Shown piece after piece: positions 6,790 to 38,420 of a DNA stretch of 52,960 nucleotides (within the stretch, counting starts at the first letter, position 1; every line of letters begins with the position of its first letter). Source of the stretch: Candidatus Rifleibacteriota bacterium (GTDB lineage Bacteria > Muiribacteriota > Ozemobacteria > Ozemobacterales > Ozemobacteraceae); contig JAAYVD010000039.1 of assembly GCA_012517355.1 (NCBI GenBank), positions 1-52,960 of the forward strand. The letters are read 5' to 3'. The notes beneath the pieces were generated by a model. That model had not been told where the DNA came from. It worked only from the letters and a program-made list of their open reading frames with translations, and made no database searches. The position numbers and the translations under genes are program-made.

Positions 6790-8742
6790 TCAGAAGGTGA
6801 TCTTCTGGTCGATGACGGGGACGAGGTTGGGACCGGTGACGGTGACGTAGCCTTCGGTGGCCCGCACCTTGGGCAGCTTCACGGCCGCTTCGCCGTCGCT
6901 GTTGGTGAGGCAGAGGGAAGCGTTCTCGACGCCTTCGGTGTAGACGACCACGCGGGCGTTGTTGACCGGTTTGCCCTCGGCATCCTTCACGACGATGCGC
7001 ACGGGAATGCCGTCATCAGCCTTGACGGTCTCGACGGTGGCGGTGACGGGGACCGGATCCTTGAAGCGGACCTGGAGGGTGCCGTCGCCGAACAGGTGCC
7101 ACTGCTCGAACATCATGACGCCGGAGCCCTTCGGATCAACGCCGTACACCTCGAGGCCCTTCATGATGCCGTTGAAGGCCAGGCCACCGGCGGTCTTATA
7201 GAGCTCATTGATGGTGTAGTTGTTGTTGATCTCGGCCTGCACGACGCAGGGGGGCACCCATTCCTGGTTGGTGGAGGACCCGAAGATGCCGACGGCACCG
7301 GCGGGGGCTTCGATGTTGCCGGCGCGCATCCAGGCTTCGCAGAAGCAGGTCTTGCCGACGAACTGACCGTTGACGCAGGCGACGCTCCAGATCAGGGGCA
7401 TCTTCCAACCGTTCGTGAGGGCGGCGCAATCGGTGTTGCTGAAGTAGGTGGTGCCCCAGCTGGTGGTGCTGCCGTGGCCGATGTAGTTGATCAGGCTGCG
7501 GCCTTCGTTGACCGCCGCGGCGACCATGGCCTTGGTGGCATTGGGATCGTAGATCTTGTCGATCTTGGTGAAGTTCCAGCCTTCGAGAGCAGCGCGCAGT
7601 TCCTCGCAGCGGGCGAAGTCGGTCGGGTTGCCCTGGTTCGAGGCGATGCCGGTGCCCAGGCGGTACCAGGCCTTGTCGTTGACCGTCGGATAGGCTTCGT
7701 AGTTGACGAACTTGGCGACCTGGTAGGCCACTTCCTTGGCGTTGGTGGCGGACAGGCGGCTGATGATGCAGTCGGGAACGTGATCGTCGCCGGCGAGCTT
7801 GGTGTAGCAGGGATCGGAATCGGCCCGTTCCTTCACGCCCTTCAGGGTGGGAATCTGCTCGGCATCGCCGACCAGCATGATGTGGGTCAGGCCGCCCTTG
7901 TTGTATTCCTTCTGGATGAAGGCCTTGACCTCGTCGGCGGTCTTGCCAGCTTCGCTGGCCTTGGCGACCACGACGGTCAGACCGCACTTCTGCTTCCAGA
8001 CCACGAAGGGGTTGATGGCTTCGAGATACTCGTCGTAGCAGATGACCAACAGGCGGCCGTTCTCTTCGAGGCGGGGCAGCCGGCTGGCGACCTGCCGGAA
8101 GTTGATGAAAGCGTTCCGGTAGATGGGCTCGTAGATCTTGCTGATGCCCTTGGCAACCGGGGCGCGGGAGGAACCGGTGCCGCTGACGGCGACGCTCAGG
8201 TTCCGGTAGACGCGCAACTGGTTCTTGACCGGGTTGTACTGGACCGGGGTCACGACCACGTTGACGCCGCGCACATCGCGGAAGGTGAAGGGCTCACCCA
8301 TCTTCACGAGGTCGGCATCGGCGGGATACCATTTGTCCTGGGCGTAGACATCGCCGAACGCGTAGGGAACGTTGGCGGGGTCGATGTCGCGGGTGAAGTT
8401 CCCGCGGCTGGGAATGACGGAGGCTTCGAGGTTGACGATCTGGGCCTGGCCCTTGACCACGCTGAAGATCGGGTTCTTGCGCGGGTCGACCATGACCAGG
8501 GCGGTCAGGCGGGGCAGTTCGGGGGCGTCTTTGTCAAAGGACACGCTGGTGTTGGGAACGTTGATCGAAACGACGGGCCGGCCCGCCACTTCGCCCTTGG
8601 TGAAAGTGACGTCTTCCACCTTGATCTGGAGAGTCGTGTCAAAGCCCTTGGTGGCCTTGACCGTGATCCCCGTGGCCGCCCACGAACCGGCGGCACAACA
8701 CACGACCGCGAGAACAGTACAAAGGATAGTCCAACGCCTCAC
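6790..8742 (-). CDS. Secreted gingipain-like cysteine peptidase (family C25)
   Basis: This 650-residue protein is predicted to be a secreted cysteine endopeptidase. A signal peptide covers about residues 1-22, with AxA-type cleavage near SWA. Residues about 25-215 look like the propeptide domain that precedes C25 catalytic domains. The catalytic domain, about 225-560, carries His423 in IGHGSTTSWG and Cys456 in SVACVNGQF. The 33-residue spacing equals that of the His/Cys pair in RgpB gingipain. A C-terminal Ig-like domain (about 565-650) follows. The start is a GTG with an excellent Shine-Dalgarno (acaggaggaattgga before GTG). The gene appears monocistronic, with its own promoter and terminator. 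I do not recognise a type IX secretion sorting domain at the C-terminus, so the export route to the surface is unknown. Substrate cannot be told. Confidence 0.88.
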   Translation of the reverse strand: MRRWTILCTVLAVVCCAAGSWAATGITVKATKGFDTTLQIKVEDVTFTKGEVAGRPVVSINVPNTSVSFDKDAPELPRLTALVMVDPRKNPIFSVVKGQAQIVNLEASVIPSRGNFTRDIDPANVPYAFGDVYAQDKWYPADADLVKMGEPFTFRDVRGVNVVVTPVQYNPVKNQLRVYRNLSVAVSGTGSSRAPVAKGISKIYEPIYRNAFINFRQVASRLPRLEENGRLLVICYDEYLEAINPFVVWKQKCGLTVVVAKASEAGKTADEVKAFIQKEYNKGGLTHIMLVGDAEQIPTLKGVKERADSDPCYTKLAGDDHVPDCIISRLSATNAKEVAYQVAKFVNYEAYPTVNDKAWYRLGTGIASNQGNPTDFARCEELRAALEGWNFTKIDKIYDPNATKAMVAAAVNEGRSLINYIGHGSTTSWGTTYFSNTDCAALTNGWKMPLIWSVACVNGQFVGKTCFCEAWMRAGNIEAPAGAVGIFGSSTNQEWVPPCVVQAEINNNYTINELYKTAGGLAFNGIMKGLEVYGVDPKGSGVMMFEQWHLFGDGTLQVRFKDPVPVTATVETVKADDGIPVRIVVKDAEGKPVNNARVVVYTEGVENASLCLTNSDGEAAVKLPKVRATEGYVTVTGPNLVPVIDQKITF

Positions 8743-20874: not shown

Positions 20875-21048
20875 ATGAAACTGAGCAAAGACGAAGCCTA
20901 CTACATTCTGACCAACCTCGAGCAATTCGTGTCCCGCTTCGAGTCGGCCACCCGGAAGAAGGTCACTCCCGGTGCCCTCGACATCATCCATGAGATCCTG
21001 ACCGAGGTTTCCTTCCCCGCCGGTGCGGGTTCCGAGAACGTGCACTGA
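20875..21048 (+). CDS. 57-residue unknown soluble protein
   Basis: The product starts MKLSKDEAYYILTNLEQF and ends AGAGSENVH. It is amphipathic and mostly helical, with no signal peptide or membrane segment. ATG 20875 follows gcggagg at a good distance. Codons show the high third-position GC of real genes here. A strong hairpin follows 28 bp after the stop. It lies alone on the plus strand, divergent from the TIM-barrel gene. I do not recognise a family; a small adaptor or regulator would fit the size. Confidence 0.65.
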   Translation: MKLSKDEAYYILTNLEQFVSRFESATRKKVTPGALDIIHEILTEVSFPAGAGSENVH

Positions 21049-21135: not shown

Positions 21136-21155
21136 ACCCCCGCCGCAACGGGGGT
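21136..21155 (-). terminator. Intrinsic terminator of the lipoprotein operon
   Basis: Read on the minus strand, ACCCCCG-ttgcgg-CGGGGGT is followed at once by TTTCTTT, a classical Rho-independent terminator. It ends the three-gene minus-strand unit 26762-21182 and faces the hairpin of the small plus-strand gene. Confidence 0.8.
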
Positions 21156-21181: not shown

Positions 21182-24100
21182 TCAGTATTCCACGAACATG
21201 CTGATGCCGTCGGCGTCGGCGACAAAATACTTGTTCTGGAAATACTTGATCATGAACGGGAAACGGACACTTCCCCAGACGGGGATGGCCGTGTCGTCGC
21301 GACCGATTTCCCAGACGGTCGACCAACTCATGTCCTGGTCGAGTTTGTAAATGCGGTTCCGGTCAGAGTCGGCGAAGAGGTAGTAGCGGGAGTCGGTCTC
21401 GATCCAGTCGAACCCGAAGTTTCCACCTGTGGTGGGGGCGGGCGGCAAGCTCAGGGTCATGCCGGTCATCCAGGTGCCGGTATCGGTCAGATTGTAGGCC
21501 CGCAACGTCCGATCCGCCGTGATGGCCCAGATATCGACGGCCGTCGCCCCGAACTCGAAGAACCGGTGGAAGTCCATGGCTTTGGCCTGCGCCGGCAGGG
21601 AGATGGTGCTCACCGGAGGGATCCCGGCAATTTGGAGATTGGCGCTGTCGATCTGGGTTCCCATCATGAAGAAGGCCATGCGGTTGCCATTGTCGAACTC
21701 GCCCTTGCCGTAGAAAACGGGGGTTCCCATCGGGGAAATCCCGGTGGAATCACTGGTGATGGTCGAGTCCGGAATCCCTCCGATCAGGTCCTGATACTGG
21801 AAGTAGAAGCCGGAATAGGGCGGCAGGCCTGCTGCCACGAGGTGGACGGAAGCCAGGTCGCCGGCCGTATCGGTGGCGATGTAGAGATCGTGGAAGGTCC
21901 ATTGGCCTGAACTGAGAGAGGCAAACCACTGGCCGCTGTACCCGGTCGGGGGACTCAACTGGAAGGTGGTGGCGGTCGGATGCGAAAGCCATCGTTCCTC
22001 AACCCTGTTGTTCCAGAGGAAGAACATCCGGTCCAGGTTCGGGTGGGGCAGCAGCACCTTCTGAGGGGTCGATGGCAGGCCGAATTCGCCCCAGGGATGG
22101 AAGTCACGGAACACGAGCCGGTTCCGGATGTCCATCTCCTGACCGGATGTCTGGTAGGTTCCGGCGCTGTTCTGAACACCGGTCACCACCAGTTTCAGGG
22201 TGGCCGTATCGGCGGGGATGGTGCTCGCGAAATCCAGGGTGACAAACGTGCCGCCCCCATCGACGGTCACCCCGGTGGGGTTGATCCGTTGGCTGCTGAT
22301 CAGGCTTCCATCCGCCCGATTCTTCAGGTCGTTGACCAGGGTGTAGTTCAGCGGGGCGGCTGCCTGGGCGGAATTCACCGTATCGCTGAAGGTCACGGTG
22401 ATCTGGGTCAGGTTGGAAAGTTCGGCAGGATCGTAGGCAAGATTGCCGAGAACGCTCAGGGTGCAAGGAATGGACCCGGACCCGACCCCATCGTAGACAT
22501 TGATCACGAAGTTGTTGACCTGGCCGGCGGTGGTCGGGGTCCCTGTGACATACCCCTGCGACCCAACCGACGAAAGGCTCAGACCAGTCGGCAGGGCGCC
22601 GGTCAGCAGTTGCCAGGTGGCAGGATCGGGGCCGTTCGTCGTCCGGAAGACATACTGGTAGGGAACCCCCTGGATCGCCGTGGGCAAGGTCAAGGAAGGC
22701 GACCCGACGATCTCGTATACCAGTTGGGAGGCCTGAATGCTGATCATCCCTGACCAGTTCGCCGTCGCGGAGTTGCCCTGATCGAGGACGTCGATGGCGA
22801 TGGAGACCGGTCCGACGGCCGTGGGCGTGCCCGCCAACACACCGGTCGAGGAGTCGAAAGTCCAACCGGCGGGAAGGCCCGTGCAGGACCAGACCAAGGT
22901 GCCCACGGCCCCCACCGCGTTGAAGTCGTGGGAGAACGGCTGCCCCACCACCCCAGCAAGGGAGCCCGGGTCGACGATGGCCAGAGAGGTGCCGCCCACG
23001 CTGATCATGCCGGACCAGGTCGCCGTGGTGGAGGTGCCCTGGTCGCGGGCGTTCACCACGAGGGACAGGGGACCGATGGCGGTGGGGGTTCCCATCAGGA
23101 CTCCGGTGGAGGCGTTCAGGGACCACCCGGATGGCAGGGCCGGGCTGCTCCAGGCGAAGGGGCCGACGCCGCCACCCACCTCGAAGTCGTAGGTGAACGG
23201 CTGGCTGACGGTCGCCACGAGATTGCCGGGGTCGATGATCCCGAAAGCGTTCCCCGAAACGCTCATCATGGTCGACAGGCGGGAGATCTGCCCGAAATAG
23301 TCGCGCACCAGGAGCTGGAAGGTGGCCGGCCCCGAAATGGTGGGAGTGCCTTTCAACAGGCCGTCTGACCCCAGGGCCAGGCCCGTCGGAAAGCCGCTGC
23401 CTGCCCAGACGAACGGCGAGGCGCCACCTTTGGCCGTGAACTGGTAGGAAAACGGCTGATAGGCGGCCGCGGAAAGGTTTCCCGGATCGGTGATCTTGAC
23501 CGGGTTGGCCAGGGCCATGCCGTTGACCAGGCCACGCAGGGCGATCTGGAATTCGATGGTGTCCCCCGTCGTCGGGCAGAAGCATTTCGTTCCCACGATA
23601 CCAACTTTCCGCAGGAGGTACAAAGTGTGCTTTTCTTCCTTCAACCCCGTGAGAACTGAGTAGGGATTGGTCGGATCGGGGTAGGCCGTATGGATGTCGA
23701 TGGGGACCACCGCCGCCACCCCCGCCTCGGCCAGGGGGAACGGCCGGAGGAGGTACAGGTCCCCGACCGTGACGGTCTTGACGCTGGTGATGGTCTTCCC
23801 TTCGAAGGGGAAGGTGACCGTGGCGACGGTCACGTCATCGGTCACGAGCGGGTCGTTGAGGATTTTCCAGGGCTTGCCCCCGTTGAAGGTGCTGTCGTTG
23901 CCGTAGTAGTACAGCCCTTTGTCCAGGGCGAAACGCAGGGTTCCGGAGGTGATGGAGCCGCTTTGGCCGGGGAACAGATCGGCCCGCATCGCCAACCGCG
24001 TCGGGCGCGCCGAGCCCAGAGGCATGTCTGGAGTGTAGAGGACGCCGGTGGATCCCAGGGCAGCATCGAGGTCGACGAAAGAAACGGACGTGCGCCTGAC

Positions 24101-24727
24101 CGGGAAGACCTGGCGGCCATCCACGGTGGTGGGACTGTCGACGGTCTGCATCACCCCGAAGCTGGTGTTGGGGGCTTGATCCTCCTCGATGGCGTAGAAC
24201 AGGCGATCGCCCTGCCGGATGGGGAAATACTCGACGAGCGGGGCGTTGACTGCCGTGGTCGAGCTGCTCTCGAAACCGATCTCCTCGATGAGGTATTCCC
24301 CTTCGTCCTCGATGAGGAAGAAGGTGATGACCATGGTCTTGCCCGACACGCCGGTATACCTGGCGGGGACCACGTAAAGACCGTTGTCCCAGAAGATTTC
24401 CGACGGGTTGATCTCGAAACTGTAGGAGGCATCGTCGGCAGGGTTGTAGATGTCCTCCCCGAAATCCTGTAGGTAGAGACGGCTGACCTGGGTGGTCGCC
24501 TCCCCGGTCGACTGGCGCCGCGTGGCGAAGAAGCTGGCGGCTTTCCCGGGGTCCTGGGCCGCCAGAGCGCCGAAGAACCCCTGCAGCGTCCGGTTGATGG
24601 CCGGAAGATCAGGCGGGGGATGGGCCGCGGAACTCCCGCCCTGGCCACCACCGCCAAGACACCCCAATGCAAAAATCACCGCCCCGAGGAGGGCGGTGAT
24701 CGAAAAGAAGGCGAAGGAACGGCTCAT
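21182..24727 (-). CDS. Large lipoprotein with putative Ig (He_PIG-like) domains
   Basis: 1,181 residues from ATG 24727. The signal peptide MSRSFAFFSITALLGAVIFA ends in a lipobox at Cys23 (ALGC), followed by a Gly-rich tether, so the protein is lipidated. Residues about 35-190 are an alpha/beta region that may be NTF2-like. Residues about 410-790 hold four He_PIG-type Ig domains, each opening with a DPGxL or similar strand and containing a P-x-GW or P-x-GL turn. An SbsA-like Ig domain lies at about 795-890. The C-terminal 290 residues have repeated beta blades and may form a beta propeller. The ORF could start at 24766, but only ATG 24727 gives a proper lipobox. It follows the beta-barrel gene by 16 bp, in one apparent operon. 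The function is probably surface binding or complex assembly. Confidence 0.78.
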   Translation of the reverse strand: MSRSFAFFSITALLGAVIFALGCLGGGGQGGSSAAHPPPDLPAINRTLQGFFGALAAQDPGKAASFFATRRQSTGEATTQVSRLYLQDFGEDIYNPADDASYSFEINPSEIFWDNGLYVVPARYTGVSGKTMVITFFLIEDEGEYLIEEIGFESSSTTAVNAPLVEYFPIRQGDRLFYAIEEDQAPNTSFGVMQTVDSPTTVDGRQVFPVRRTSVSFVDLDAALGSTGVLYTPDMPLGSARPTRLAMRADLFPGQSGSITSGTLRFALDKGLYYYGNDSTFNGGKPWKILNDPLVTDDVTVATVTFPFEGKTITSVKTVTVGDLYLLRPFPLAEAGVAAVVPIDIHTAYPDPTNPYSVLTGLKEEKHTLYLLRKVGIVGTKCFCPTTGDTIEFQIALRGLVNGMALANPVKITDPGNLSAAAYQPFSYQFTAKGGASPFVWAGSGFPTGLALGSDGLLKGTPTISGPATFQLLVRDYFGQISRLSTMMSVSGNAFGIIDPGNLVATVSQPFTYDFEVGGGVGPFAWSSPALPSGWSLNASTGVLMGTPTAIGPLSLVVNARDQGTSTTATWSGMISVGGTSLAIVDPGSLAGVVGQPFSHDFNAVGAVGTLVWSCTGLPAGWTFDSSTGVLAGTPTAVGPVSIAIDVLDQGNSATANWSGMISIQASQLVYEIVGSPSLTLPTAIQGVPYQYVFRTTNGPDPATWQLLTGALPTGLSLSSVGSQGYVTGTPTTAGQVNNFVINVYDGVGSGSIPCTLSVLGNLAYDPAELSNLTQITVTFSDTVNSAQAAAPLNYTLVNDLKNRADGSLISSQRINPTGVTVDGGGTFVTLDFASTIPADTATLKLVVTGVQNSAGTYQTSGQEMDIRNRLVFRDFHPWGEFGLPSTPQKVLLPHPNLDRMFFLWNNRVEERWLSHPTATTFQLSPPTGYSGQWFASLSSGQWTFHDLYIATDTAGDLASVHLVAAGLPPYSGFYFQYQDLIGGIPDSTITSDSTGISPMGTPVFYGKGEFDNGNRMAFFMMGTQIDSANLQIAGIPPVSTISLPAQAKAMDFHRFFEFGATAVDIWAITADRTLRAYNLTDTGTWMTGMTLSLPPAPTTGGNFGFDWIETDSRYYLFADSDRNRIYKLDQDMSWSTVWEIGRDDTAIPVWGSVRFPFMIKYFQNKYFVADADGISMFVEY

Positions 24728-24743
24728 ATCGACATTCCCGTGC

Positions 24744-26762
24744 TCAGAAGTCGTATTCGAGGCCACCGTAGAACTCGGTCACCGTCATGGGACGGGTGAA
24801 GTCCCAGAGCAGTTCCTGGGAGGTGGTGTCGAACGACTTGTAGTAGGTCTTCTCGCGGGAGGCGGTCAGCTTGAGCTTGAGATCCTTGCGGATGAACCAG
24901 TTGAACTTCCCTTCGGTGAAGGGCTGGGACTGGTTGCGCCAGTCGCTGGCGATGTTGTTGCCGTTGCGGTTCGAGAACTTGCGGAAGGCCTGTTCGAGCG
25001 ACCAGTCGTATTTCTTGGGTTGGGCGTAGGCGGCCTGCAGCCCGGTCTGGAGATACCGGTAATCGCGGTAGAACATGGCGGTGTACATCCGGGCCAGGTA
25101 TTCCCCGCGCCAGGTCAGCTCGATCTTCGAGGGGAGCTTCCAGGTGGCGCGCATGGAGAAGAGATTCTCGGCGAAGTCCATGACGTCCCCGATGAGGGTG
25201 TAACGCCGGTGGAACGTGTCTTCGACCTTCAGCTTGAAACGGTCGGTGAACTTCTTCTCCCACATGCCCATCCACTGGTGGTTCTTGTGGCTGCGGGCCT
25301 TGGTCTTCTCGTCGTTGAAGATGTAGGCGTGGCCGATTTTGGCGCGGGTCTTCTTGTCGATCGTGATATGGCCGGTGGTCTTGATCTTCAGCTGGGCATA
25401 CCCGCGTGGGTTGTCGCTGGGATAGTGGCGGCGCTGGTGTTCGTCCTCGAAGGTCCATTTCCAGGTCTTGCTGACCGGCAGGTCGTAGCGGAACCGGAAG
25501 TAGTTGTCCCAGTAGCTGGCCCGGAACAGATTGATCGCCTCGCTCTCGAAGAGGCGGTGATCGTAGGTGTCGGAGACGCTGATCTCGCTCTTGTTTCCGC
25601 CATAGGAGCGCTGGAACTCGACGTAGGTGTTTTCGTTGCGGTAATCGAGATTCGGCGAATTCTTGTATTCGCGCCAGTTGTAGGTGCTTTCCCCGAACAG
25701 CGTCCCGTTCTGGATGAAGTAGGTGGTCTGGGTCATGACGTTTTTCTGGGTGAAATCAGAACGGGAGTAGTCGGGGTAGGTGCGGGTTTCGTAACCCAGG
25801 TTGTACATGCGCTCGTAGCGGCCTTCCTTGCGGTTGAGAAAGATCTCGGCCGTGTTGTCCCGGTAGGCCTTCTGCGCATTCTGCGGATACCAGACGTGGT
25901 GCAGGGTGTCCTTGAACGAATAGATGGTGCGGGGGGAATGGGTGTGCACCCAGGAGAAAGTCAGCACATTCTCTTTGACCAGTTCATTGCGCCGGCGCTG
26001 CAGGTACTTGTCCTCGAGGAAGAGCTTGTCATTCTCGTCCAGCTGGTAGGCCAGGCTGAGCTTGCCCTGGTAGTAGTTGTTCGGAAGGGCGGTGTTCTGG
26101 GCGGTGTATTTCTCGTTCTTGTTACGAAGATCGACCTTCAGCGAGCCCGTCAGTTTGACCTTGTCGCTCTCCTGGACCTTGGGAACATCGAGCGTGGCAG
26201 GCGACGGCGAGGAGGAGGGAACGACGGCCACAGGGGCGGTTTCCTGGGCAGGGGCGGTCACCGCAGCCCCGGGGGCGGGCTTGGCCGGCTGACCGGCGGC
26301 CGGTTGCTGGGAGCGGGCCGGGGCCGCGGCTGTGGCCGCCGGCTTGGCGGCGGGCGGGGCGCCGGACTGGCCGTCCTCGAAGTTCGTCAGGTAGAAGTCG
26401 CGGAACTTCCGGTAGAGGTCGTCGAGGCGGCTGAACCCGTCGAAGAGCTGGGCGCGGTCGGCCGGATAATCGCCGGAAACGCTCTTGAACAGGTCGTCCA
26501 TGAGATCGTAGCGGCGTTGCACGAAGTCGAGCAGGTCGGCGGCGTCTTCCTTGAGGGCGTCGTGCTCGGGCATGCCGGGCTTCAGGTTCTGGTTCTGGAT
26601 CTTGCGCTGGATCTCCTCGAGCTTTCGCAGGGAAGTGAGGAAATCGGGCTCGTAGCGCCGGAAGGCATCGAGTGCCTTGGCACTGGCGTCGGCGAGAGCG
26701 AAGGCGGGGACGACCCCGGCCACGAGAATCATGAGGACCAGAGAGAGCAGGCGAAGTTTCAT
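24744..26762 (-). CDS. Outer-membrane beta-barrel protein with coiled N-terminal domain
   Basis: 672 residues from ATG 26762, which has a perfect Shine-Dalgarno (gggaggaaacgtc). A signal peptide (MKLRLLSLVLMILVAGVVPA...) covers 1-25. Residues about 25-135 are helical. An Ala/Pro-rich linker runs from about 140 to 195. From about 210 to the end the sequence alternates polar and aromatic residues in long strands, with many Tyr, Trp, Arg and Lys, and ends in the aromatic residue of EYDF, as outer-membrane barrels do. I count enough strands for a barrel of roughly 20 or more strands. No known porin or TonB-dependent family is evident. It lies between the FecR-domain gene (26 bp upstream) and the lipoprotein gene (16 bp downstream), suggesting one envelope complex. 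Confidence 0.72.
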   Translation of the reverse strand: MKLRLLSLVLMILVAGVVPAFALADASAKALDAFRRYEPDFLTSLRKLEEIQRKIQNQNLKPGMPEHDALKEDAADLLDFVQRRYDLMDDLFKSVSGDYPADRAQLFDGFSRLDDLYRKFRDFYLTNFEDGQSGAPPAAKPAATAAAPARSQQPAAGQPAKPAPGAAVTAPAQETAPVAVVPSSSPSPATLDVPKVQESDKVKLTGSLKVDLRNKNEKYTAQNTALPNNYYQGKLSLAYQLDENDKLFLEDKYLQRRRNELVKENVLTFSWVHTHSPRTIYSFKDTLHHVWYPQNAQKAYRDNTAEIFLNRKEGRYERMYNLGYETRTYPDYSRSDFTQKNVMTQTTYFIQNGTLFGESTYNWREYKNSPNLDYRNENTYVEFQRSYGGNKSEISVSDTYDHRLFESEAINLFRASYWDNYFRFRYDLPVSKTWKWTFEDEHQRRHYPSDNPRGYAQLKIKTTGHITIDKKTRAKIGHAYIFNDEKTKARSHKNHQWMGMWEKKFTDRFKLKVEDTFHRRYTLIGDVMDFAENLFSMRATWKLPSKIELTWRGEYLARMYTAMFYRDYRYLQTGLQAAYAQPKKYDWSLEQAFRKFSNRNGNNIASDWRNQSQPFTEGKFNWFIRKDLKLKLTASREKTYYKSFDTTSQELLWDFTRPMTVTEFYGGLEYDF

Positions 26763-26788
26763 GACGTTTCCTCCCAATCGTGACCGGT

Positions 26789-28438
26789 TCACTTGCCCGA
26801 GTTCAGGAACTGGCTGAGCTGGCTTTCGAGGTCGTTCAGGCGGCTTTCCAGGAGGTCCGCCCCGATGCCGATCTGCTGGTAGGTGTTCTGGATGCGGTCG
26901 AAGATGGATTCCATCTCCTCCTGTTCGGCCGTCTTGAACTTCTGACCGGCGGTGGCGCGCATGGTGGAGTCATACAGGCGCTGGGCGTTGGTATACAACC
27001 GGCGCGACTTGGAGAAATCGCGCATGATCGAGAGCGAAGCGCTCAGCCGCTTTTCGGCATCGGCCCCGCTCACGGTGGTGTTGTAGGACTCGATCTGCTT
27101 GTTCAGAAGCAGGATCGCATCCGACATGGTGTCGTCGATATCCTGGAGCTCGGTCAGCATGGACCCGTCGATCTCGACCACGGCGAGGTCTTTCAGCAGG
27201 TTGCTGATCTGGGACTGCTTGGCCGCGATCTGCTTGAGCATGTTCTGGGCGGGAAGGGACGATGGGTTGGCATCGAGGAACGACTGGACCTCCTGGGAGA
27301 GCATGTCGAGTTCCTGCAGGGCGATGGTGCACTGGTCGAGAGCCTCGGCGAACCAATCCTGGCTGAGACCCGCCGGGTTGGCCGACACCTCGCGCAGGAT
27401 GTTCTCGACCGGCTCGAGGGCGGCCGTCAACTCGGCCTGCAACTGGCCAATCTCCTCGCTGCCCGCCCCGGAATCGGTCTTGAACTTCGTTTTCATCATC
27501 TTGGCGATTTCCATCTGATAGCCCTGGATCTTCACCTGGGCATCGGCGACCATCTTCTGGTAGCCCGCCACCTGGGTCAGCTGGGACGGTGACAATCCGC
27601 CCCCCCCAAGGGTTTTGTCGATCTTCATCCGCATGGCCCCGAGGATCAACAGGTCTTCCATGATCACACCGGTGAACCGTTCCGCACTCTTGATGAATTC
27701 CTGCGCATCTTCCAGAGGGACCTGGCCGAGGGCCAGAAGGGCTTTGAAATCGTCGATGATCGCGGTGAAGTTTTCCGCTTCGCTCTGCAGCAGCCCCTGG
27801 ATGATGCCCGGGACCTCTTCGAGCTCAAAGTTGGCGCCCATTTTCGAGAGTTCCTCGTCCCACTTCTTCTTTTCGGCCTCGATGTCGATCTCGGATTTTT
27901 CGGTCTTGCCGCCCTTCTTGACCACGAGTTCTTCGCCTTCGTTGACCGTGATCTTTTCCTGGGATTCGCGGATCAGGACTTCGGCAACGCCACGCAGGAC
28001 AGAGATGCGGTCTTCGTCAATGTTCGACTGGCAGGTGATGTTGGTGCCTTTGATGCCGGCGACGGCCTGGCTCATCTCGATGTCCATCGTGCCGTCCTTC
28101 ACCATCTTCTTCACGTTCACCCACAGGTTGCCGGCGAGGAGCTTGATCTGGCTGTCCTTGGCGGCGGGGCTCGACAGCACGATCTCGGATTCCGGCTTCA
28201 TGACGAAGGTGGTCATGTCGGCGAAGCTCAGAATGGCGCTGGAGCGTTCGGCGGTCTTGACGTGGTCGTCGACGTTCAGCGGCATGTCGAGCTTGGCGAA
28301 CGACCAGGCCTCCTCGTCGGCGTCAGGCCGTACTTCGACCTGCCCCGATAGATCGGAGAACCGCGCGCCCGAGTCTTCGGCCCAGGCGGGGACCAACAGG
28401 CAAGAAAAAACAAGGAAGGCCGCCAACACACGTTTCAT
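26789..28438 (-). CDS. Exported FecR-domain protein with long coiled-coil region
   Basis: 549 residues from ATG 28438, which has gaggag at the right distance. A signal peptide covers 1-20 (MKRVLAAFLVFSCLLVPAWA). Residues about 25-165 match the FecR periplasmic domain, with the pattern SSAILSFADMTTFVMKPESEIVL and the following LLAGNLWVNVKK strands. Residues about 195-540 are predicted helices and coiled coil rich in Glu, Gln, Leu and Lys. Classical FecR is a membrane anti-sigma regulator; here there is no transmembrane helix after the signal peptide, no sigma factor and no TonB receptor nearby. A structural or scaffolding role in the envelope with the next two genes is more likely. It is the first gene of its operon. 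Confidence 0.78.
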   Translation of the reverse strand: MKRVLAAFLVFSCLLVPAWAEDSGARFSDLSGQVEVRPDADEEAWSFAKLDMPLNVDDHVKTAERSSAILSFADMTTFVMKPESEIVLSSPAAKDSQIKLLAGNLWVNVKKMVKDGTMDIEMSQAVAGIKGTNITCQSNIDEDRISVLRGVAEVLIRESQEKITVNEGEELVVKKGGKTEKSEIDIEAEKKKWDEELSKMGANFELEEVPGIIQGLLQSEAENFTAIIDDFKALLALGQVPLEDAQEFIKSAERFTGVIMEDLLILGAMRMKIDKTLGGGGLSPSQLTQVAGYQKMVADAQVKIQGYQMEIAKMMKTKFKTDSGAGSEEIGQLQAELTAALEPVENILREVSANPAGLSQDWFAEALDQCTIALQELDMLSQEVQSFLDANPSSLPAQNMLKQIAAKQSQISNLLKDLAVVEIDGSMLTELQDIDDTMSDAILLLNKQIESYNTTVSGADAEKRLSASLSIMRDFSKSRRLYTNAQRLYDSTMRATAGQKFKTAEQEEMESIFDRIQNTYQQIGIGADLLESRLNDLESQLSQFLNSGK

Positions 28439-28690
28439 TCTGGAACTCCTCGATGGGTAGACTCTCAGGGGGTAACACTCTTCCGTGACGAGGCATGGTA
28501 GCATACCGCTCCAGGGTAGTCAATGAGTCGTACCCTGCACGGATTGTCAAGGACTTTCCCCTGCCTGTCGCCCATCGCCTCCGGAACGGATGCCAGGGAA
28601 GGACCTGAAGTCCCCGGAAGGAACGCGGCAGCCCAGGACGACTGAGGGATCAGGCTGGGAAGGGATGACTCCCCCGGCCGGGTTCCGGCG
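28439..28690. other. Intergenic region upstream of the FecR-domain gene
   Basis: No gene seen. On the minus strand there is a perfect TTGACA, but only weak -10 matches at 16-18 bp from it, so I do not call a promoter. GC content drops in the 28480-28560 part, consistent with regulatory DNA. Confidence 0.35.
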
Positions 28691-30622
28691 CTACTTCACA
28701 TTCCAGGCCGTGACGTTTCCCGCCTGGTCGGATACCTGGACCGCAAGCTTGGCGGCGCGGGCCTGCCCGGGGGGCTCAAGGACGTAGATCTCGTCGCGAT
28801 CGGGGTCGGAATCCGCTTCTGCCTTCTTCCCACCGATGGTGGCGCGGGTCGCATACCAGTCGATCCCCGAACCTTCGTCGGATACTTCGAACACGTGGAC
28901 CTTTCCCAGGGTCACCAGGGTCCGCCGGCCACGATAGGTCAGGCGCGGCGGCACCGGGTCGCGCACCAGGACGAGAGGCATGGGAACGCGGGTGCCCAGA
29001 GTAAGGGTGCCGCCCTTGGCGTCACCCCCCTGGCAGCCATAGGATCGCCCCTGGCGCCATCGGTAGGCCCCGATCTTTTGGGCCTCCTCGCCGGCGGGAA
29101 GGGGGAACACCCACGCCGCCGCCTTGTCGGTCACCAGGTCGGCCGGAGCGAAGGACCAGACCGGGGACACTTCGACGAGGGCGGGGCTTTGGCCCTTCGC
29201 CGGGGCCTGGGCTTCGCGCACCACCTCGACGCGCGCCAGGATGGGGAGGTTCAGGGACCCTTCCGGGAAGCGGATTTTCAAGCCCCGGGGGCCTTCCATC
29301 TCCCCACCTGCCCGGTCGAGGTAGCGATGCGGAGGAAGCACCTCGCTGGGCCCGGTCTTCGCCCCCCCCGCCCATTCCGGGGCGATGGGAAAAGCGATCG
29401 ACACCCCGGTCTTGGTGATAACCGCGGGAAGGCGGTGTTCCCGGCCCGCGCCATCCGTCACGGTCACCGAGTCGGCCTGGGCGGAAACCACGCCTTCGGG
29501 CGGCTCACACTCGACGATCACCGAGGTGGGACAGTATCGCAGCCGCCGCGGCCGAAGCTCCGCCCGGATCGGTGAGCCCGGCTCCGGCAACGGTTCGCCC
29601 ACCACCGGCCCCTCGACGACCACCTGGTTGCCGGCGAAATCGCGGGCAGCGATCCGGACCGTGTGGCGCCCCGGCGCGAGGTCGAGCACGCCAGCCCAGG
29701 GCGGGGCGCCGGCGCTGAAAGGCGTGGTGTCGAACGGCCACCGGAACAGGGTGTAGACGAAACCGGTCCCCGGCCGCTCGGTCTTCGGATGATCGAAGAC
29801 ATACGGGCACTGGGGATTCTGGTCATACGAGAACGTGTCGAAGCGGCGCTCGAACAACGGCTTCCCATCGAGCTCGAGCCGGACGGTCTCGACTCCGAAC
29901 CGGCTGCCGCCCTCGCCGTGGTCGATCAGGCCGATCGCGAGCCCCGCCCGCCCGGCCAGGCGGATGGGTTGCTTCCAGCAGTAGCCCCCCGGGCCGGTCT
30001 TGGCCAGTGGCACCGTGACCGGCTGGAACCCTCCGTTGATGAGGGTCTTGGGGGAAAGGGGATCGACGTGCAGATGGAACGCCTGGGGGATCGAGGTGTC
30101 GGGCGCGACGAGGCCGAGGGTGGAAGGGCTGACCGGATCGTCGTTGAGCTTCCGCGTCTCGAAATGCAGGTGGGGGGGCCCCATCCCGGTTTCCCCGGAA
30201 TAGCCGATGATCTGGCCTTTCTTCACGGGGAACTTCTCGGGCCCGAAGAAATCATCGATGCCGTAGCGGGACCCCGACCGCGCCTGCTTGTCGGCGATGA
30301 AGCGGGCCATTGGTTCGGCGAACCGCTCCAGATGAGCGTAGAGGGAGCGGATGGCCAGCCCCGGATGGTCCAGGTAGACGGAGTTGCCGGCCCCGCGATG
30401 CTGCACCTTGAGGCGTGAGACGAACCCGTCGGCCATGGCGTGCACCGCGTGTCCCGTTTCCCCACGCGTTTTCAGATCGATCCCGGCGTGGAACCGCAGG
30501 CCGCGGTACTCGGCGAAACTCGAACTCTGTTTGATCTCGATCCGCAGGGGCCAGTCAGGGGTCTCCGCCATCAGCAGCGCGGGGAGAACGGCCAGGCAGG
30601 CCGCCACGAGCACACGTTTCAT
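28691..30622 (-). CDS. Secreted M23 (LytM-type) metallopeptidase
   Basis: 643 residues from ATG 30622, preceded by ggaggtgagggt. A signal peptide (about 1-19) directs export. The M23 domain (about 20-165) has zinc ligands His45 and Asp49 (RFHAGIDL) and His153 (PPHLHFE), with His97 (SLYAHLE) and His151 completing the active site. Such enzymes cut peptidoglycan cross-links in the periplasm. The remaining about 470 residues form several Ig-like or beta-sandwich domains, which may position the enzyme or bind a partner. The gene has its own promoter and is divergent from the flagellar operon. A role in opening the wall for flagella is possible but only suggested by position. Confidence 0.88.
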   Translation of the reverse strand: MKRVLVAACLAVLPALLMAETPDWPLRIEIKQSSSFAEYRGLRFHAGIDLKTRGETGHAVHAMADGFVSRLKVQHRGAGNSVYLDHPGLAIRSLYAHLERFAEPMARFIADKQARSGSRYGIDDFFGPEKFPVKKGQIIGYSGETGMGPPHLHFETRKLNDDPVSPSTLGLVAPDTSIPQAFHLHVDPLSPKTLINGGFQPVTVPLAKTGPGGYCWKQPIRLAGRAGLAIGLIDHGEGGSRFGVETVRLELDGKPLFERRFDTFSYDQNPQCPYVFDHPKTERPGTGFVYTLFRWPFDTTPFSAGAPPWAGVLDLAPGRHTVRIAARDFAGNQVVVEGPVVGEPLPEPGSPIRAELRPRRLRYCPTSVIVECEPPEGVVSAQADSVTVTDGAGREHRLPAVITKTGVSIAFPIAPEWAGGAKTGPSEVLPPHRYLDRAGGEMEGPRGLKIRFPEGSLNLPILARVEVVREAQAPAKGQSPALVEVSPVWSFAPADLVTDKAAAWVFPLPAGEEAQKIGAYRWRQGRSYGCQGGDAKGGTLTLGTRVPMPLVLVRDPVPPRLTYRGRRTLVTLGKVHVFEVSDEGSGIDWYATRATIGGKKAEADSDPDRDEIYVLEPPGQARAAKLAVQVSDQAGNVTAWNVK

Positions 30623-30645
30623 ACCCTCACCTCCAGGGTGCACGA

Positions 30646-33911: not shown

Positions 33912-36900
33912 ATGATGCGATCGCTGTTCACGGGAGTTACGGGCCTGAAGCAGCACCAGACCCGGATGGACGTGTTGAGCAACAACATCTCCAACGTCAA
34001 CACCACCGGGTTCAAGCGGGGACGCGCCCTCTTCCAGGATCTGTTCTCGGAAACCCTCCGCCACGCCCAGCAGGCGTTCGGCGATTACGGCGGCCTGAAC
34101 CCGATGCAGGTCGGCCTGGGCACGCGGATGGCCGCCATCGACACGCTGATGGAGCAGGGCACCCTGGAGACGACCGGGAAGAACACCGACCTCGCGATCG
34201 AGGGGGAAGGCTTCTTCACCATCGAGTCGGCCGACGGCAACGTCGTCTACTCGCGCGACGGCAACCTGAACATCAACCCCAACTACGACCTGGTCAGCAC
34301 CAACACCGGGTTCAAGATCATGGGCTGGATGTCGACCCAGAACCCGGTCACGGGCAACCTGGAACTCGACCAGAATGGGGTGGTGCCTGAGACCGTCAAC
34401 ATCGTCAAGTATCTGAAGAAGCACGCCCACCAGACCAACAACGTCACCTACGCCTCGAACCTCGACAGCGGCTCGGCCGAGCGCGACGTCGAGATGGCCA
34501 CCGACTACCTGGCCTTCCGCGACACCGCCGGGGTCGAACAGAAGCTGCAGCTGAAGTTCAAGAAGCTCGATGCCAAGAACTGGCTGTGGTCGGCCATCGA
34601 CGGCAACAACAAGAACGTCGCCAACGGGTCGTTCAAGACCGACGAGGACGGCAACCTGATCGCCACGAGCGTCAACCCCGCCGGGGCCGCCTCCACGGCC
34701 GCCGACCCCTACTTCGTCTACGATCCCGACGGCCTGTTCATGCCCGCCGAAGCCACCATTCCCCGCAACGACGTGAACAACACCGGCACCGGTTCGAGCA
34801 CTCCGGTCGTCGCCAGCGGAAGCTTGGTGCGGGACGAGTCGGTCGACATCATCTTCGACGGCGGCGATCCCTCGCGTGCCACCACCTTCCGGGTCGTCGG
34901 CAGCGAGCGCGGCTTCATCGGTGGCGGCGTCCTGGGCGGCACCCAGGCCAAGATCGAGGGCAACCCCTTCATGTTCGAAACCGGCTGGGAGCCCAGCAAG
35001 GCGGTCACCTTCACCATCACCGAGGTGCAGGACCTGATGGCCGGCTCTCTCTCCACCCGGGAGAACTGGGCCAACATCACCTTCAACGCCGGCACCCTCT
35101 ACACCGTCAACGACATCAAGACCATCGCCAACACTGCCCTCAAGAACGGCGGGGTCAACGCCACCCTGCAGTATGACTCGACCACCAAGAAGTTCTCGAT
35201 CGTGTCGAACAACGTCGGCTCGAACACCACCCTGATGCTCGACAACATCTCCGGCCCCATCGCCGAGCTCGGCATCGACCCGGGCAACGCGGCGGGCTCC
35301 GCCTTCCTGTCGAACTACAACGTGGTCTACCCGGGCACTTCCGACGGGGTGAAGAACATCCTCAACACCGTCATGTTCCAGATCGCCGACAACGCGGGGC
35401 ATGTGGCCAACGTCCGGTTCAACCCGGGCACCTACACCCGCGCCCAGATCCAGTCGACCATCGAGAACGCCCTCAGCTCGAACGGCATCAGCGCCCAGGT
35501 CTCCTTCATCACCGAGGGCACCGTCGTCCGGCTGCAGATCGCCCCCAACCAGGGCACCACCCTCCAGCTGACCGACGTGCAGGGCCTGCTCTCGGAACTC
35601 GGCATCAACCCTATCACCCAGGGAGAAAACACGTTCATCTCCGAGTTCGACATGGGATTCTTCGTGAACGGAATGACCTCGACGAAGGACTTCAACCCCG
35701 GGTTCGCCGTTGGCTTCAATCTCGGCAGCCGGGTGACCAACCCCGCCGCCGTCGACATCCCCACCCCCGGTCAGGTCATCCGCATCACCAACGCCACCGT
35801 TCCTCCCTCCACCTGCGACATCGCGTATCTCGACGCCGACACTCCCAGCCTGGCCCAGATCGTCGCGGATATGAACGCGGCCATGGCGGCGGCTGTTCCT
35901 CCTGTCCCCGCCACCGCCACGCTGGTCGGCAACCAGATCCAGCTCCGCGCCAACGATCCCGACTCCGAAACCCTGTCGATCGACTTCCTCGGCAACACCG
36001 GGGCGCCCAACTATCCCGCGGGCACCGACTTCCTCGGCAAGGATCCGCTGATCCGCATTTCCAGCGATGTCCGCATGCTGATCGAAGACCCGTACAAGAG
36101 CGGAAACGACCTGGGCGAAGTCGGGGTCCTGCTGGGCAGCGCCCAGGCCGACCCGCTCAACATCGTCCTGGCCCGCACCGAAAACGTCACCCTGTCCGAC
36201 TCGGGCGGCAACGTCTCGGTCGTCTCGATTCCCGCCGGCACCTATACCCTGGCCCAGATCCAGGGCCTCATCGACGGGGGGAAGGGGAGCGTGGAAGCGA
36301 CCGTCGCCCTCGTCGGGAACCGGATCAGTGTGGTCCCTTCCGGCGGCGGCACCGTCTCGATCGCCGGCGCCTCCTTCCTCGGCGTCGAACCGAACATCAC
36401 CGCCGACGGCTCGGTAACCAACCCCGCCCAGCCCGCCCTGTTGATCGCGACCGGCAGCTATACCCGCGACGAGATCAAGGGGCTCATCCAGAACTACCTG
36501 ATCGAGCAGGACATCGCCGCCCAGGCCATCTTCGTCGACACCGACTCGGACGGCATCGGCAACCAGCTCCAGATCAACGGCCTCGTCGGGGAACGCATCC
36601 GCATCACCGACCTGACCTACGCACCCGCCACCCCGACCCTCCCCGCCGTCAATGGCACCATGAAATCCGAACTGGGGCTGACCCCCAGCAACAGCTGGGA
36701 GCCCGACCGGGATATCTCCTTCCGCATCTACCGCCCCGACTGGGACCAGACCATCACCATCCGCATCCCGTCCACCGATGCCGGCGCCTTCCAGGGCCCC
36801 TACAACCTCGACACCCTGGCCCTCGAGATCCAGCGCCAGATCGACAGCGTCGAACTCCATACCGGCGCCAAGGGCCTGGTCGTCGAGACCATCGACGCCA

Positions 36901-38420
36901 ACAACGACGGGGTGAAGGACCACTTCCAGATCCGCTCCACCAACACCCCCGAACGCATCCGCCTCGAAAACGGCGACGGCGTCAACCCCGACGCCGGCCA
37001 CAACATCTCCCTGCTGGGCCTGCAGTCCGGCATCACCGCCGACGGCACCGGCGGCGCCGCGCCCCAGGTCTACAGCAACCCGAACTTGCGCAACTTCGCG
37101 GTCGAACCGTTCTTCCTCCCCCGCACCGTCGACTTCGTCATCGCCGACGCGGCCGGGCACACCACCGAGGTTTCCCTGCCCATGCTCGATTCCACGAGCA
37201 CACCCATCCAGTACACCCGCAGCGCCATCCTCAGCGCCATCAACTCGCAGTTGCTCAAGGACAAGGTCGACGCCACGGCCGCCATCATCGACACCAACAA
37301 CGACGGAACACCCGACACCCTGACCATCACCGGCACCCAAAGCGGTGCGGGTCAGAAGATCGTGCTGTCGGGCGACGAATCCATGGCCCAGCTCGGCCTG
37401 GAAGCCGGCACCTACGGGGGCACCGCCGCCGTGGGCACCTTCGACCAGGGCGGCCTGGCCTTCACCCTGACCGAAGGCACCAAGGCCTGGCGGCCGAACG
37501 AGTTCCTGTCGTTCGCCACCAAGGCCGAGCGGGGCGCGTCCGAGAGCGTCAAGATCGAGGTGCCCGCCTTCTCCGACAAGGAACTGGTCTTCCAGACCAC
37601 CGTGAACGGCGAGACGTACAAGACCACCGGCACGATCAGCAAGGGCGCCCTCCATTCCACCAGCATCACGATCTACGACTCGCTGGGCTCGGCGCACGAG
37701 CTGGTCACCGAGTGGGAGCACACGAACAAGGACAGCCAGGAGTGGCGGTACAAGATCACCTACGCGAAAGACGACCCGGAGATCCAGAACTGGCTGAAAG
37801 ACCCGGCCAACGGGGTGCCCGACCCCGAGAATCCCGGCTACGACTGGCTCGAGAAGGCGAACGACGCCCTGATCAAGGACCGCAAGGGGCTCATCTACTT
37901 CTCGAACAACGGCAAGATCGACCTGGCCCGCTCGATCATCCGCGACGTGTCGATGACCCCCGCCGGCTCCAACCCGGTCACCGTCAAGCTCGACCAGGCA
38001 CTGGTCACCCAGTTCGCCTCGGACTTCACGACCAAGGCCCGCGAGCAGGACGGCTACGAGATGGGCCTGCTCGAGACCATCTACTTCGAGCAGGACGGGA
38101 CGATCCGCGGCGTCTACTCGAACGGCCAGAAGCAGCCGATCGGCCAGCTCGCCATCACGACCTTCAACAATCCGGCCGGCCTCGAGAAACTCGGAAAGAA
38201 CCTCTACGAGTATTCCCCCAACTCGGGCCAGGCGATCGTCTGCCGCCCTGGCGTGGCCAGCGCCGGCGTCATCGTGCCCGGGACCCTCGAGATGAGCAAC
38301 GTCGACATCGCCGAGGAGTTCACCAACATGATCATCACCCAGCGTGCCTTCCAGGCGAACTCCCGCGTCATCACCACCTCCGACGAGATCCTCCAGGAAG
38401 TGGTCAACCTCAAGAGGTAA
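33912..38420 (+). CDS. flgE: Giant flagellar hook protein FlgE
   Basis: 1,502 residues, three to four times the usual 400-450. FlgE polymerises into the curved hook joining rod and filament. The N-terminal D0/D1 part is typical (SLFTGVTGLKQHQTRMDVLS, NNISNVNTTGFKRGR), as is the C-terminus (EEFTNMIITQRAFQANSRVI). Between about residues 290 and 1240 lies a huge insertion. In it, about seven flagellin_IN-like repeats can be seen starting near residues 397, 508, 645, 778, 851, 964 and 1101, each beginning with a Y-T-x3-I type helix and ending in a hydrophobic strand. Two repeats carry calcium-like loops (DTDSDGIG, DTNNDGTP). The normal hook body resumes at about 1250. ATG 33912 follows aaagga at 9 bases; ATG 33915 is equally possible. 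Confidence 0.93.
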   Translation: MMRSLFTGVTGLKQHQTRMDVLSNNISNVNTTGFKRGRALFQDLFSETLRHAQQAFGDYGGLNPMQVGLGTRMAAIDTLMEQGTLETTGKNTDLAIEGEGFFTIESADGNVVYSRDGNLNINPNYDLVSTNTGFKIMGWMSTQNPVTGNLELDQNGVVPETVNIVKYLKKHAHQTNNVTYASNLDSGSAERDVEMATDYLAFRDTAGVEQKLQLKFKKLDAKNWLWSAIDGNNKNVANGSFKTDEDGNLIATSVNPAGAASTAADPYFVYDPDGLFMPAEATIPRNDVNNTGTGSSTPVVASGSLVRDESVDIIFDGGDPSRATTFRVVGSERGFIGGGVLGGTQAKIEGNPFMFETGWEPSKAVTFTITEVQDLMAGSLSTRENWANITFNAGTLYTVNDIKTIANTALKNGGVNATLQYDSTTKKFSIVSNNVGSNTTLMLDNISGPIAELGIDPGNAAGSAFLSNYNVVYPGTSDGVKNILNTVMFQIADNAGHVANVRFNPGTYTRAQIQSTIENALSSNGISAQVSFITEGTVVRLQIAPNQGTTLQLTDVQGLLSELGINPITQGENTFISEFDMGFFVNGMTSTKDFNPGFAVGFNLGSRVTNPAAVDIPTPGQVIRITNATVPPSTCDIAYLDADTPSLAQIVADMNAAMAAAVPPVPATATLVGNQIQLRANDPDSETLSIDFLGNTGAPNYPAGTDFLGKDPLIRISSDVRMLIEDPYKSGNDLGEVGVLLGSAQADPLNIVLARTENVTLSDSGGNVSVVSIPAGTYTLAQIQGLIDGGKGSVEATVALVGNRISVVPSGGGTVSIAGASFLGVEPNITADGSVTNPAQPALLIATGSYTRDEIKGLIQNYLIEQDIAAQAIFVDTDSDGIGNQLQINGLVGERIRITDLTYAPATPTLPAVNGTMKSELGLTPSNSWEPDRDISFRIYRPDWDQTITIRIPSTDAGAFQGPYNLDTLALEIQRQIDSVELHTGAKGLVVETIDANNDGVKDHFQIRSTNTPERIRLENGDGVNPDAGHNISLLGLQSGITADGTGGAAPQVYSNPNLRNFAVEPFFLPRTVDFVIADAAGHTTEVSLPMLDSTSTPIQYTRSAILSAINSQLLKDKVDATAAIIDTNNDGTPDTLTITGTQSGAGQKIVLSGDESMAQLGLEAGTYGGTAAVGTFDQGGLAFTLTEGTKAWRPNEFLSFATKAERGASESVKIEVPAFSDKELVFQTTVNGETYKTTGTISKGALHSTSITIYDSLGSAHELVTEWEHTNKDSQEWRYKITYAKDDPEIQNWLKDPANGVPDPENPGYDWLEKANDALIKDRKGLIYFSNNGKIDLARSIIRDVSMTPAGSNPVTVKLDQALVTQFASDFTTKAREQDGYEMGLLETIYFEQDGTIRGVYSNGQKQPIGQLAITTFNNPAGLEKLGKNLYEYSPNSGQAIVCRPGVASAGVIVPGTLEMSNVDIAEEFTNMIITQRAFQANSRVITTSDEILQEVVNLKR

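What the first reader, a model, noticed from the sequence alone, without database searches (positions are those of the whole stretch)
21182..28438. FecR-domain coiled coil, beta barrel and Ig lipoprotein in one operon
Three large envelope proteins are spaced by 26 and 16 bp with a shared terminator: an exported FecR-domain protein with a long coiled coil, a barrel with a helical periplasmic part and a lipoprotein with Ig domains and a possible propeller. There is no sigma factor or TonB receptor. This looks like a self-contained periplasm-spanning complex, perhaps for secretion, adhesion or outer-membrane tethering, and I know no described system with this set.
Basis: partly seen in the sequence, partly recalled or inferred. 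Interest (0 to 1): 0.7.

Follow-up and report, generated by a model that had tools for sequence, protein, structure and literature searches.

The report
Lineage-specific outer-membrane barrel–FecR complex operon
Three neighbouring genes in an uncultured Ozemobacteraceae bacterium encode an undescribed outer-membrane barrel, its constant periplasmic partner and a fast-changing lipoprotein; the pair is kept side by side across the whole family and probably builds an envelope assembly that displays proteins on the cell surface, though this has not been tested.

Summary
Three exported proteins lie on the minus strand, 26 and 16 bp apart: FecR domain plus helical array (26789-28438), barrel (24744-26762) and Ig lipoprotein (21182-24727). 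The window is a contig of an Ozemobacteraceae genome. The barrel family was found in 23/24 family genomes and 0/16 other genomes of the phylum. It has no credible Pfam, NCBIfam or PDB relative. A FecR gene lies directly 5' of the barrel at all 23 readable loci, in several unrelated contexts and in a second copy in this genome. The lipoprotein is the third partner only in part of the family: 12 of 18 loci where the next gene is visible. So the core is a FecR-helical/barrel pair and the lipoprotein is a variable accessory. Profile analysis supports a 22-24-strand barrel with 3-4-residue periplasmic turns, C-terminal Phe in 19/19 and unusually conserved outer loops. Structure prediction of the barrel failed because the permitted alignment was too shallow. 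Best reading: an outer-membrane export or display platform that works like, but is not a member of, the Slam/type XI system (confidence about 0.4). Rivals are an envelope-spanning scaffold and an uptake channel. Flagellar-ring replacement and FecI/FecR/FecA signalling were rejected.

The parts
26789..28438 (-). Exported FecR-domain protein with helical array (549 aa): signal peptide, FecR domain 58-152 (nt 27983-28267), all-helical region about 181-549
24744..26762 (-). Outer-membrane barrel protein (672 aa): signal peptide, three-helix periplasmic domain about 26-130, Pro/Ala-rich linker about 131-195, predicted 22-24-strand barrel 196-672 ending in Phe
21182..24727 (-). Lipoprotein (1181 aa): lipobox Cys23, family-specific N-terminal domain about 25-400 (nt 23528-24655), He_PIG Ig-like domains about 410-790, C-terminal possible NHL-like propeller
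26178..26372 (-). Pro/Ala-rich linker of the barrel protein; length varies strongly between genera (about 450 aa insertion in genus g5)
28495..28523 (-). Sigma-70-like promoter candidate for the FecR/barrel/lipoprotein operon (TTGACT-17-TACCAT, extended TG)
   Evidence: consensus match only
21136..21155 (-). Intrinsic-terminator-like stem-loop after the lipoprotein gene
   Evidence: not above chance as a class
28691..30643 (-). Upstream M23 peptidase-domain protein, frequent but separable neighbour, not part of the core

Best explanation
The locus encodes an outer-membrane assembly specific, as far as searched, to Ozemobacteraceae. SHOWN by comparison: a core pair, an exported FecR-domain protein with a helical array and a barrel-type outer-membrane protein, inherited and duplicated together; and a fast-evolving lipoprotein with a conserved N-terminal domain followed by exchangeable Ig-like modules, joined to the core in part of the family. 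INFERRED: the barrel forms a wide outer-membrane pore of about 22-24 strands whose conserved outer loops close or shape the mouth; its N-terminal helices and linker, together with the FecR-helical protein, form the periplasmic side that receives clients. The most likely job is export or display: the barrel and its periplasmic partner bring Ig/propeller lipoproteins (and other clients where this lipoprotein is missing) to the cell surface and hold them there by the conserved N-terminal domain, as Slam (type XI) barrels do with surface lipoproteins.
For: FecR gene directly 5' of the barrel in 23/23 readable loci, including loci moved away from the M23/flagellar neighbours (genus g6, G000:C47, G011:C84, G018), whereas the M23 neighbour is lost in several. 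The lipoprotein N-terminal-domain gene is directly 3' of the barrel in 12 loci, and moved with the pair in g6 and in the second copy of this genome. Barrel and FecR trees agree in their main clades, and the second copy sits in the same place in both. Lipoprotein tails are modular and variable (1-9 He_PIG, 0-3 Big_5) while the N-terminal domain is shared, and the lipoprotein diverges faster: identity to the same-genus relative G002 is 77% for the barrel, 70% for FecR, 51% for the lipoprotein N-terminal domain and about 40% for its C-terminal part, as expected of a surface-exposed product. Barrel evidence: alternation z about 4.8-5.6 on the profile, none of 60 shuffles reaching it; C-terminal Phe 19/19; 11 turns of 3-4 residues alternating with longer loops.
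Against: No structural model of the barrel: pLDDT 33 from a 4-row alignment. Strand limits in the 24-strand scheme were set by hand; an automatic segmentation finds 22 strands and recovers 21 of the 24, and on a single sequence the alternation signal is hardly stronger than in the soluble Ig region (z 2.75 against 2.32). The lipoprotein is missing beside the core in genera g5, g10 and g11, and its full-length N-terminal domain was not found anywhere in their genomes, so the core has some use without it. The N-terminal helical domain is not recognisable in the second copy, so it need not be the docking site. FecR-helical genes also occur without a barrel, beside lipoproteins. No surface-exposure data exist.
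Confidence: 0.4

Rival explanations
1. Envelope-spanning scaffold: the helical FecR protein and the barrel's periplasmic arm form a structural strut between outer membrane and cell wall or inner membrane; the lipoprotein is decoration.
For: The core persists without the lipoprotein; helical, weakly spectrin-like array; the barrel's periplasmic arm grows by about 450 residues in g5; an M23 peptidase-domain gene is often next door.
Against: No peptidoglycan-binding domain found in either core protein; SLH-domain proteins of the usual tether type exist in the genome; a strut would not need a barrel of more than 20 strands.
Confidence: 0.27
2. Uptake channel: the barrel is a large porin-like pore, the surface lipoprotein catches a nutrient (polymer) and the FecR-helical protein gates the periplasmic side; a SusCD-like division of labour without TonB.
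For: Wide predicted barrel, lipoprotein with Ig-like beta modules such as polymer-binding proteins often carry, conserved outer loops.
Against: No plug or transporter family hit; no transporter genes travel with the unit in relatives; outer loops, the usual variable part of porins, are the most conserved part.
Confidence: 0.15
3. Envelope sensor: the FecR-domain protein is a signalling element reading barrel or lipoprotein state.
For: FecR domain present.
Against: The protein is exported with no inner-membrane or cytoplasmic anti-sigma part; no sigma factor or TonB receptor found beside it; exported FecR domains without sigma partners are also curated as leptospiral surface proteins (weak matches). 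The genome has 23 FecR-domain stretches.
Confidence: 0.05
4. Flagellum-associated outer-membrane part (sheath or ring), since in several genera the operon is divergent from the fliK/flgD/flgE cluster.
For: Conserved position beside the flagellar cluster in g1, g4 and g8.
Against: The pair is found away from flagellar genes in g6, G000:C47 and G011:C84; FlgH, the normal L-ring protein, is present in nearly all genomes with the barrel; flagellate genomes of other families lack the barrel.
Confidence: 0.05

Closest known systems
Slam / type XI secretion outer-membrane proteins (DUF560) with their surface lipoprotein cargo
   Same: Barrel with an N-terminal helical periplasmic domain (about 140 aa TPR domain in NilB) encoded beside a lipoprotein (PMC8406197)
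   Different: No DUF560 hit in any of 19 barrels; predicted 22-24 strands instead of 14 (14 is from general knowledge); helical part not TPR by Pfam; cargo lacks the C-terminal 8-stranded barrel described for TXISS cargo; extra FecR-helical partner
OmpM (SLH-coiled-coil-barrel tether of Terrabacteria; PMC10628300)
   Same: Outer-membrane barrel with a helical periplasmic extension
   Different: No SLH domain; separate FecR partner; SLH proteins exist separately in this genome
Leptospiral LipL45 / Lsa33 / Lsa19 FecR-domain proteins
   Same: Exported FecR-domain proteins; weak NCBIfam matches over the FecR domain (E 4e-5 to 9e-8)
   Different: Far below the NCBIfam cut-offs; no helical array matched, no barrel partner known to me
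FecI/FecR/FecA cell-surface signalling
   Same: FecR domain PF04773
   Different: No sigma factor, no TonB receptor, no inner-membrane anti-sigma part
LptD/LptE
   Same: Large outer-membrane barrel with a lipoprotein partner (general knowledge)
   Different: No LptD domain match in this genome by PF04453; barrel family absent from the other families of the phylum

Membership tests
Type XI secretion / Slam (DUF560) | DUF560/SlipAM barrel domain by Pfam or NCBIfam | tested here: not met
   19 members scanned, no hit up to E=5
Type XI secretion / Slam (DUF560) | N-terminal periplasmic helical (TPR) domain before the barrel | tested here: inconclusive
   Three-helix domain predicted with pLDDT about 50-75, no TPR hit
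Type XI secretion / Slam (DUF560) | Neighbouring lipoprotein that is surface-exposed | tested here: inconclusive
   Neighbouring lipoprotein in 12 loci; exposure not testable here
FecIR-FecA signalling | Adjacent ECF sigma factor and TonB-dependent receptor | tested here: not met
   Flanking genes scanned in the window
FecIR-FecA signalling | FecR domain PF04773 | tested here: met
   E=1.9e-10; 22 of 24 relatives
OmpM tether | SLH domain on the barrel protein | tested here: not met
   No SLH hit in 19 barrels
Two-partner secretion / Omp85 | POTRA and ShlB/Omp85 domains | tested here: not met
   No hit in 19 barrels; the same Pfam library did find them in the G018 neighbour gene
LptD | PF04453 | tested here: not met
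Outer-membrane beta-barrel proteins in general | Signal peptide, alternating amphipathic strands, C-terminal aromatic beta-signal | tested here: met
   strand number uncertain (22-24) and no structural model

The most novel reading that the evidence does not exclude
A previously undescribed outer-membrane export system confined to Ozemobacteraceae: a barrel of about 24 strands with a dedicated FecR-domain helical periplasmic partner that moves modular Ig lipoproteins to the cell surface.
Probability: 0.3. Interest if true: 0.75.

Novelty: new variant of a known kind. Interest (0 to 1): 0.52.

Why it matters
It defines a barrel family without annotated relatives and gives the FecR domain, usually read as a regulator, a constant outer-membrane partner in a whole bacterial family. 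Because the pair moves, duplicates and diverges together, it is a testable case of a lineage-specific envelope machine in a diderm phylum whose envelope biology is almost unstudied.

Tried and rejected
Deeper alignments (A1, A2) rest on loci from the genome search, which the tool does not name as allowed, so they were not submitted. Homology of the barrel's helical domain to the FecR helical array, suspected by eye: hhalign probability 3-6%, not supported. Replacement of the flagellar L-ring: rejected, FlgH present. LptD identity: no PF04453 match in the genome; rejected as an essential LPS port because other families lack the barrel. Barrel relatives in viral contigs: none. A genome-collection scan with the single protein found only two close relatives, so absence outside the phylum is NOT shown; only the 16 other genomes of the phylum were searched by profile. 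Single-sequence barrel scoring barely separates the barrel from soluble Ig sequence; the profile was compared with three non-barrel profiles only. PDB search for the C-terminal 'propeller': nothing.

Full report
OBSERVATION. The three genes exist as described on the minus strand: a 549-aa exported FecR-domain protein (26789-28438), a 672-aa exported protein read as a barrel (24744-26762) and an 1181-aa lipoprotein (21182-24727), with 26 and 16 bp between them. The FecR domain (E=1.9e-10) and four He_PIG Ig stretches (summed E=1.4e-23) are supported by Pfam; the barrel protein has no credible Pfam or NCBIfam match. A promoter-like site lies upstream of the FecR gene and a terminator-like stem after the lipoprotein gene, both consensus matches only.

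WHERE. The window is a whole contig (C113) of a 7.1-Mb genome, 96% complete. The nearest named relatives are Candidatus Ozemobacteraceae MAGs, including Ca. Ozemobacter sibiricus. Upstream on the same strand is an M23 peptidase-domain gene; divergent from that is a flagellar cluster with fliK, an flgE-type hook gene, fliP and flhA.

DISTRIBUTION. A profile of 19 barrels (A1) matches 23 of 24 genomes of the family and none of 16 genomes of other families in the phylum. FecR-domain matches occur phylum-wide, but full-length matches reaching over the helical array are confined to this family. Absence outside the phylum was not shown: the one genome-collection scan used short peptide patterns of the single protein and found only two close relatives.

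GENE ORDER. At 22 barrel loci tabulated, plus G001, a FecR gene is directly upstream of the barrel on the same strand (gap from a small overlap to 52 bp at ORF level). At G011:C75 the FecR partner is a short, divergent version. The M23 gene acts as an internal control: it is adjacent in many loci but not in genus g6, in G011:C84 or at the second copy of this genome, and in all of those FecR and barrel stay together. The FecR gene is tandemly duplicated in three g4 genomes and flanks the barrel on both sides in g5. This genome holds a second full set on contig C47. The barrel tree and the FecR tree share their main clades and place that second copy at the same point, with moderate support (83/73 and 85/72).

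THE LIPOPROTEIN IS AN ACCESSORY. Its N-terminal domain of about 350 residues defines a family (A5; no credible Pfam or PDB relative). A member lies directly 3' of the barrel in 12 loci, in six visible loci it does not, and in four the contig ends first. The full-length domain was not found in genomes of g5, g10 and g11. Downstream of this domain the proteins differ freely: He_PIG arrays of one to nine, Big_5 domains, or no recognised domain. Some family members are unlinked, and FecR-helical genes also sit beside lipoproteins without a barrel (G014:C174, G003:C88).

STRUCTURE. AlphaFold2 of the FecR protein (three-row alignment) gave an all-helical array (pLDDT about 75-91 for 331-549) and could not model the FecR domain; fold matches are weak and spectrin-repeat-like (E 0.02 at best). 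AlphaFold2 of the barrel failed (pLDDT 33) because only four rows could be given. Instead, a strand-alternation score on the 19-row profile exceeds all 60 column shuffles (z about 4.8-5.6), unlike the lipoprotein domain, the FecR domain or the helical parts. A hand-set topology gives 24 strands with periplasmic turns of 3-4 residues and outer loops averaging 13; automatic segmentation finds 22 strands and recovers 21 of the 24. All 19 end in Phe, most within an LEYxF-like signal. Under this topology 20 of 32 invariant residues fall in outer loops (expected about 10; P=3e-4), the reverse of ordinary porins. Caveats: the limits were chosen by eye, and on one sequence alone the score barely separates the barrel from soluble Ig sequence. 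The strand-propensity numbers used are approximate values from general knowledge.

MECHANISM. The best reading is an outer-membrane platform made of the barrel and its FecR-helical periplasmic partner, with exchangeable clients, the Ig lipoprotein being the commonest. It works like Slam/type XI barrels, which pair a helical periplasmic domain and a barrel with an adjacent surface lipoprotein (PMC8406197), but it fails the DUF560 membership test. The chief rival is a structural scaffold, favoured by persistence of the core without the lipoprotein and by the long, variable periplasmic arm; it is weakened by the lack of any recognised peptidoglycan-binding domain and by SLH proteins present elsewhere. 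An uptake channel, a sensor and a flagellar ring are less likely. No step of the mechanism has been shown by experiment.

NOVELTY. No description of this gene set was found in the searches made. The barrel and the lipoprotein N-terminal domain are families without annotated relatives in Pfam or PDB. I file it as a new variant of a known kind (outer-membrane barrel with dedicated periplasmic and lipoprotein partners), because the function is inferred.

Noticed in passing
window 20875-21048 (+): A 57-aa protein (MKLSKDEAYYILTNLEQFVSRFE...) encoded convergent to the operon is conserved beside the locus in many relatives (L032, L036, L038, L041, L044, L048); no function known.
   Followed up: partly
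window 6790-8742 (-): Exported peptidase of family C25 (gingipain family) with its propeptide and an Ig-like domain, outside the Bacteroidota where the family is best known.
   Followed up: no
window 33912-38420 (+): Very long flagellar hook-type protein (1502 aa; FlgE domains only at the two ends), also 1498 aa in L065 of G001.
   Followed up: no
whole genome G000: 23 FecR-domain stretches in one genome: a large family of FecR-domain proteins whose other members were not examined.
   Followed up: no
L071:4347-9145 (-): In G018 the FecR/barrel pair is preceded by a two-partner-secretion transporter gene (POTRA_2/ShlB) and a Big_5/GLUG lipoprotein gene.
   Followed up: partly
genome G000: No PF04453 (LptD) match in a 96% complete genome with outer-membrane proteins; the lipopolysaccharide export port, if any, is divergent or missing.
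   Followed up: no
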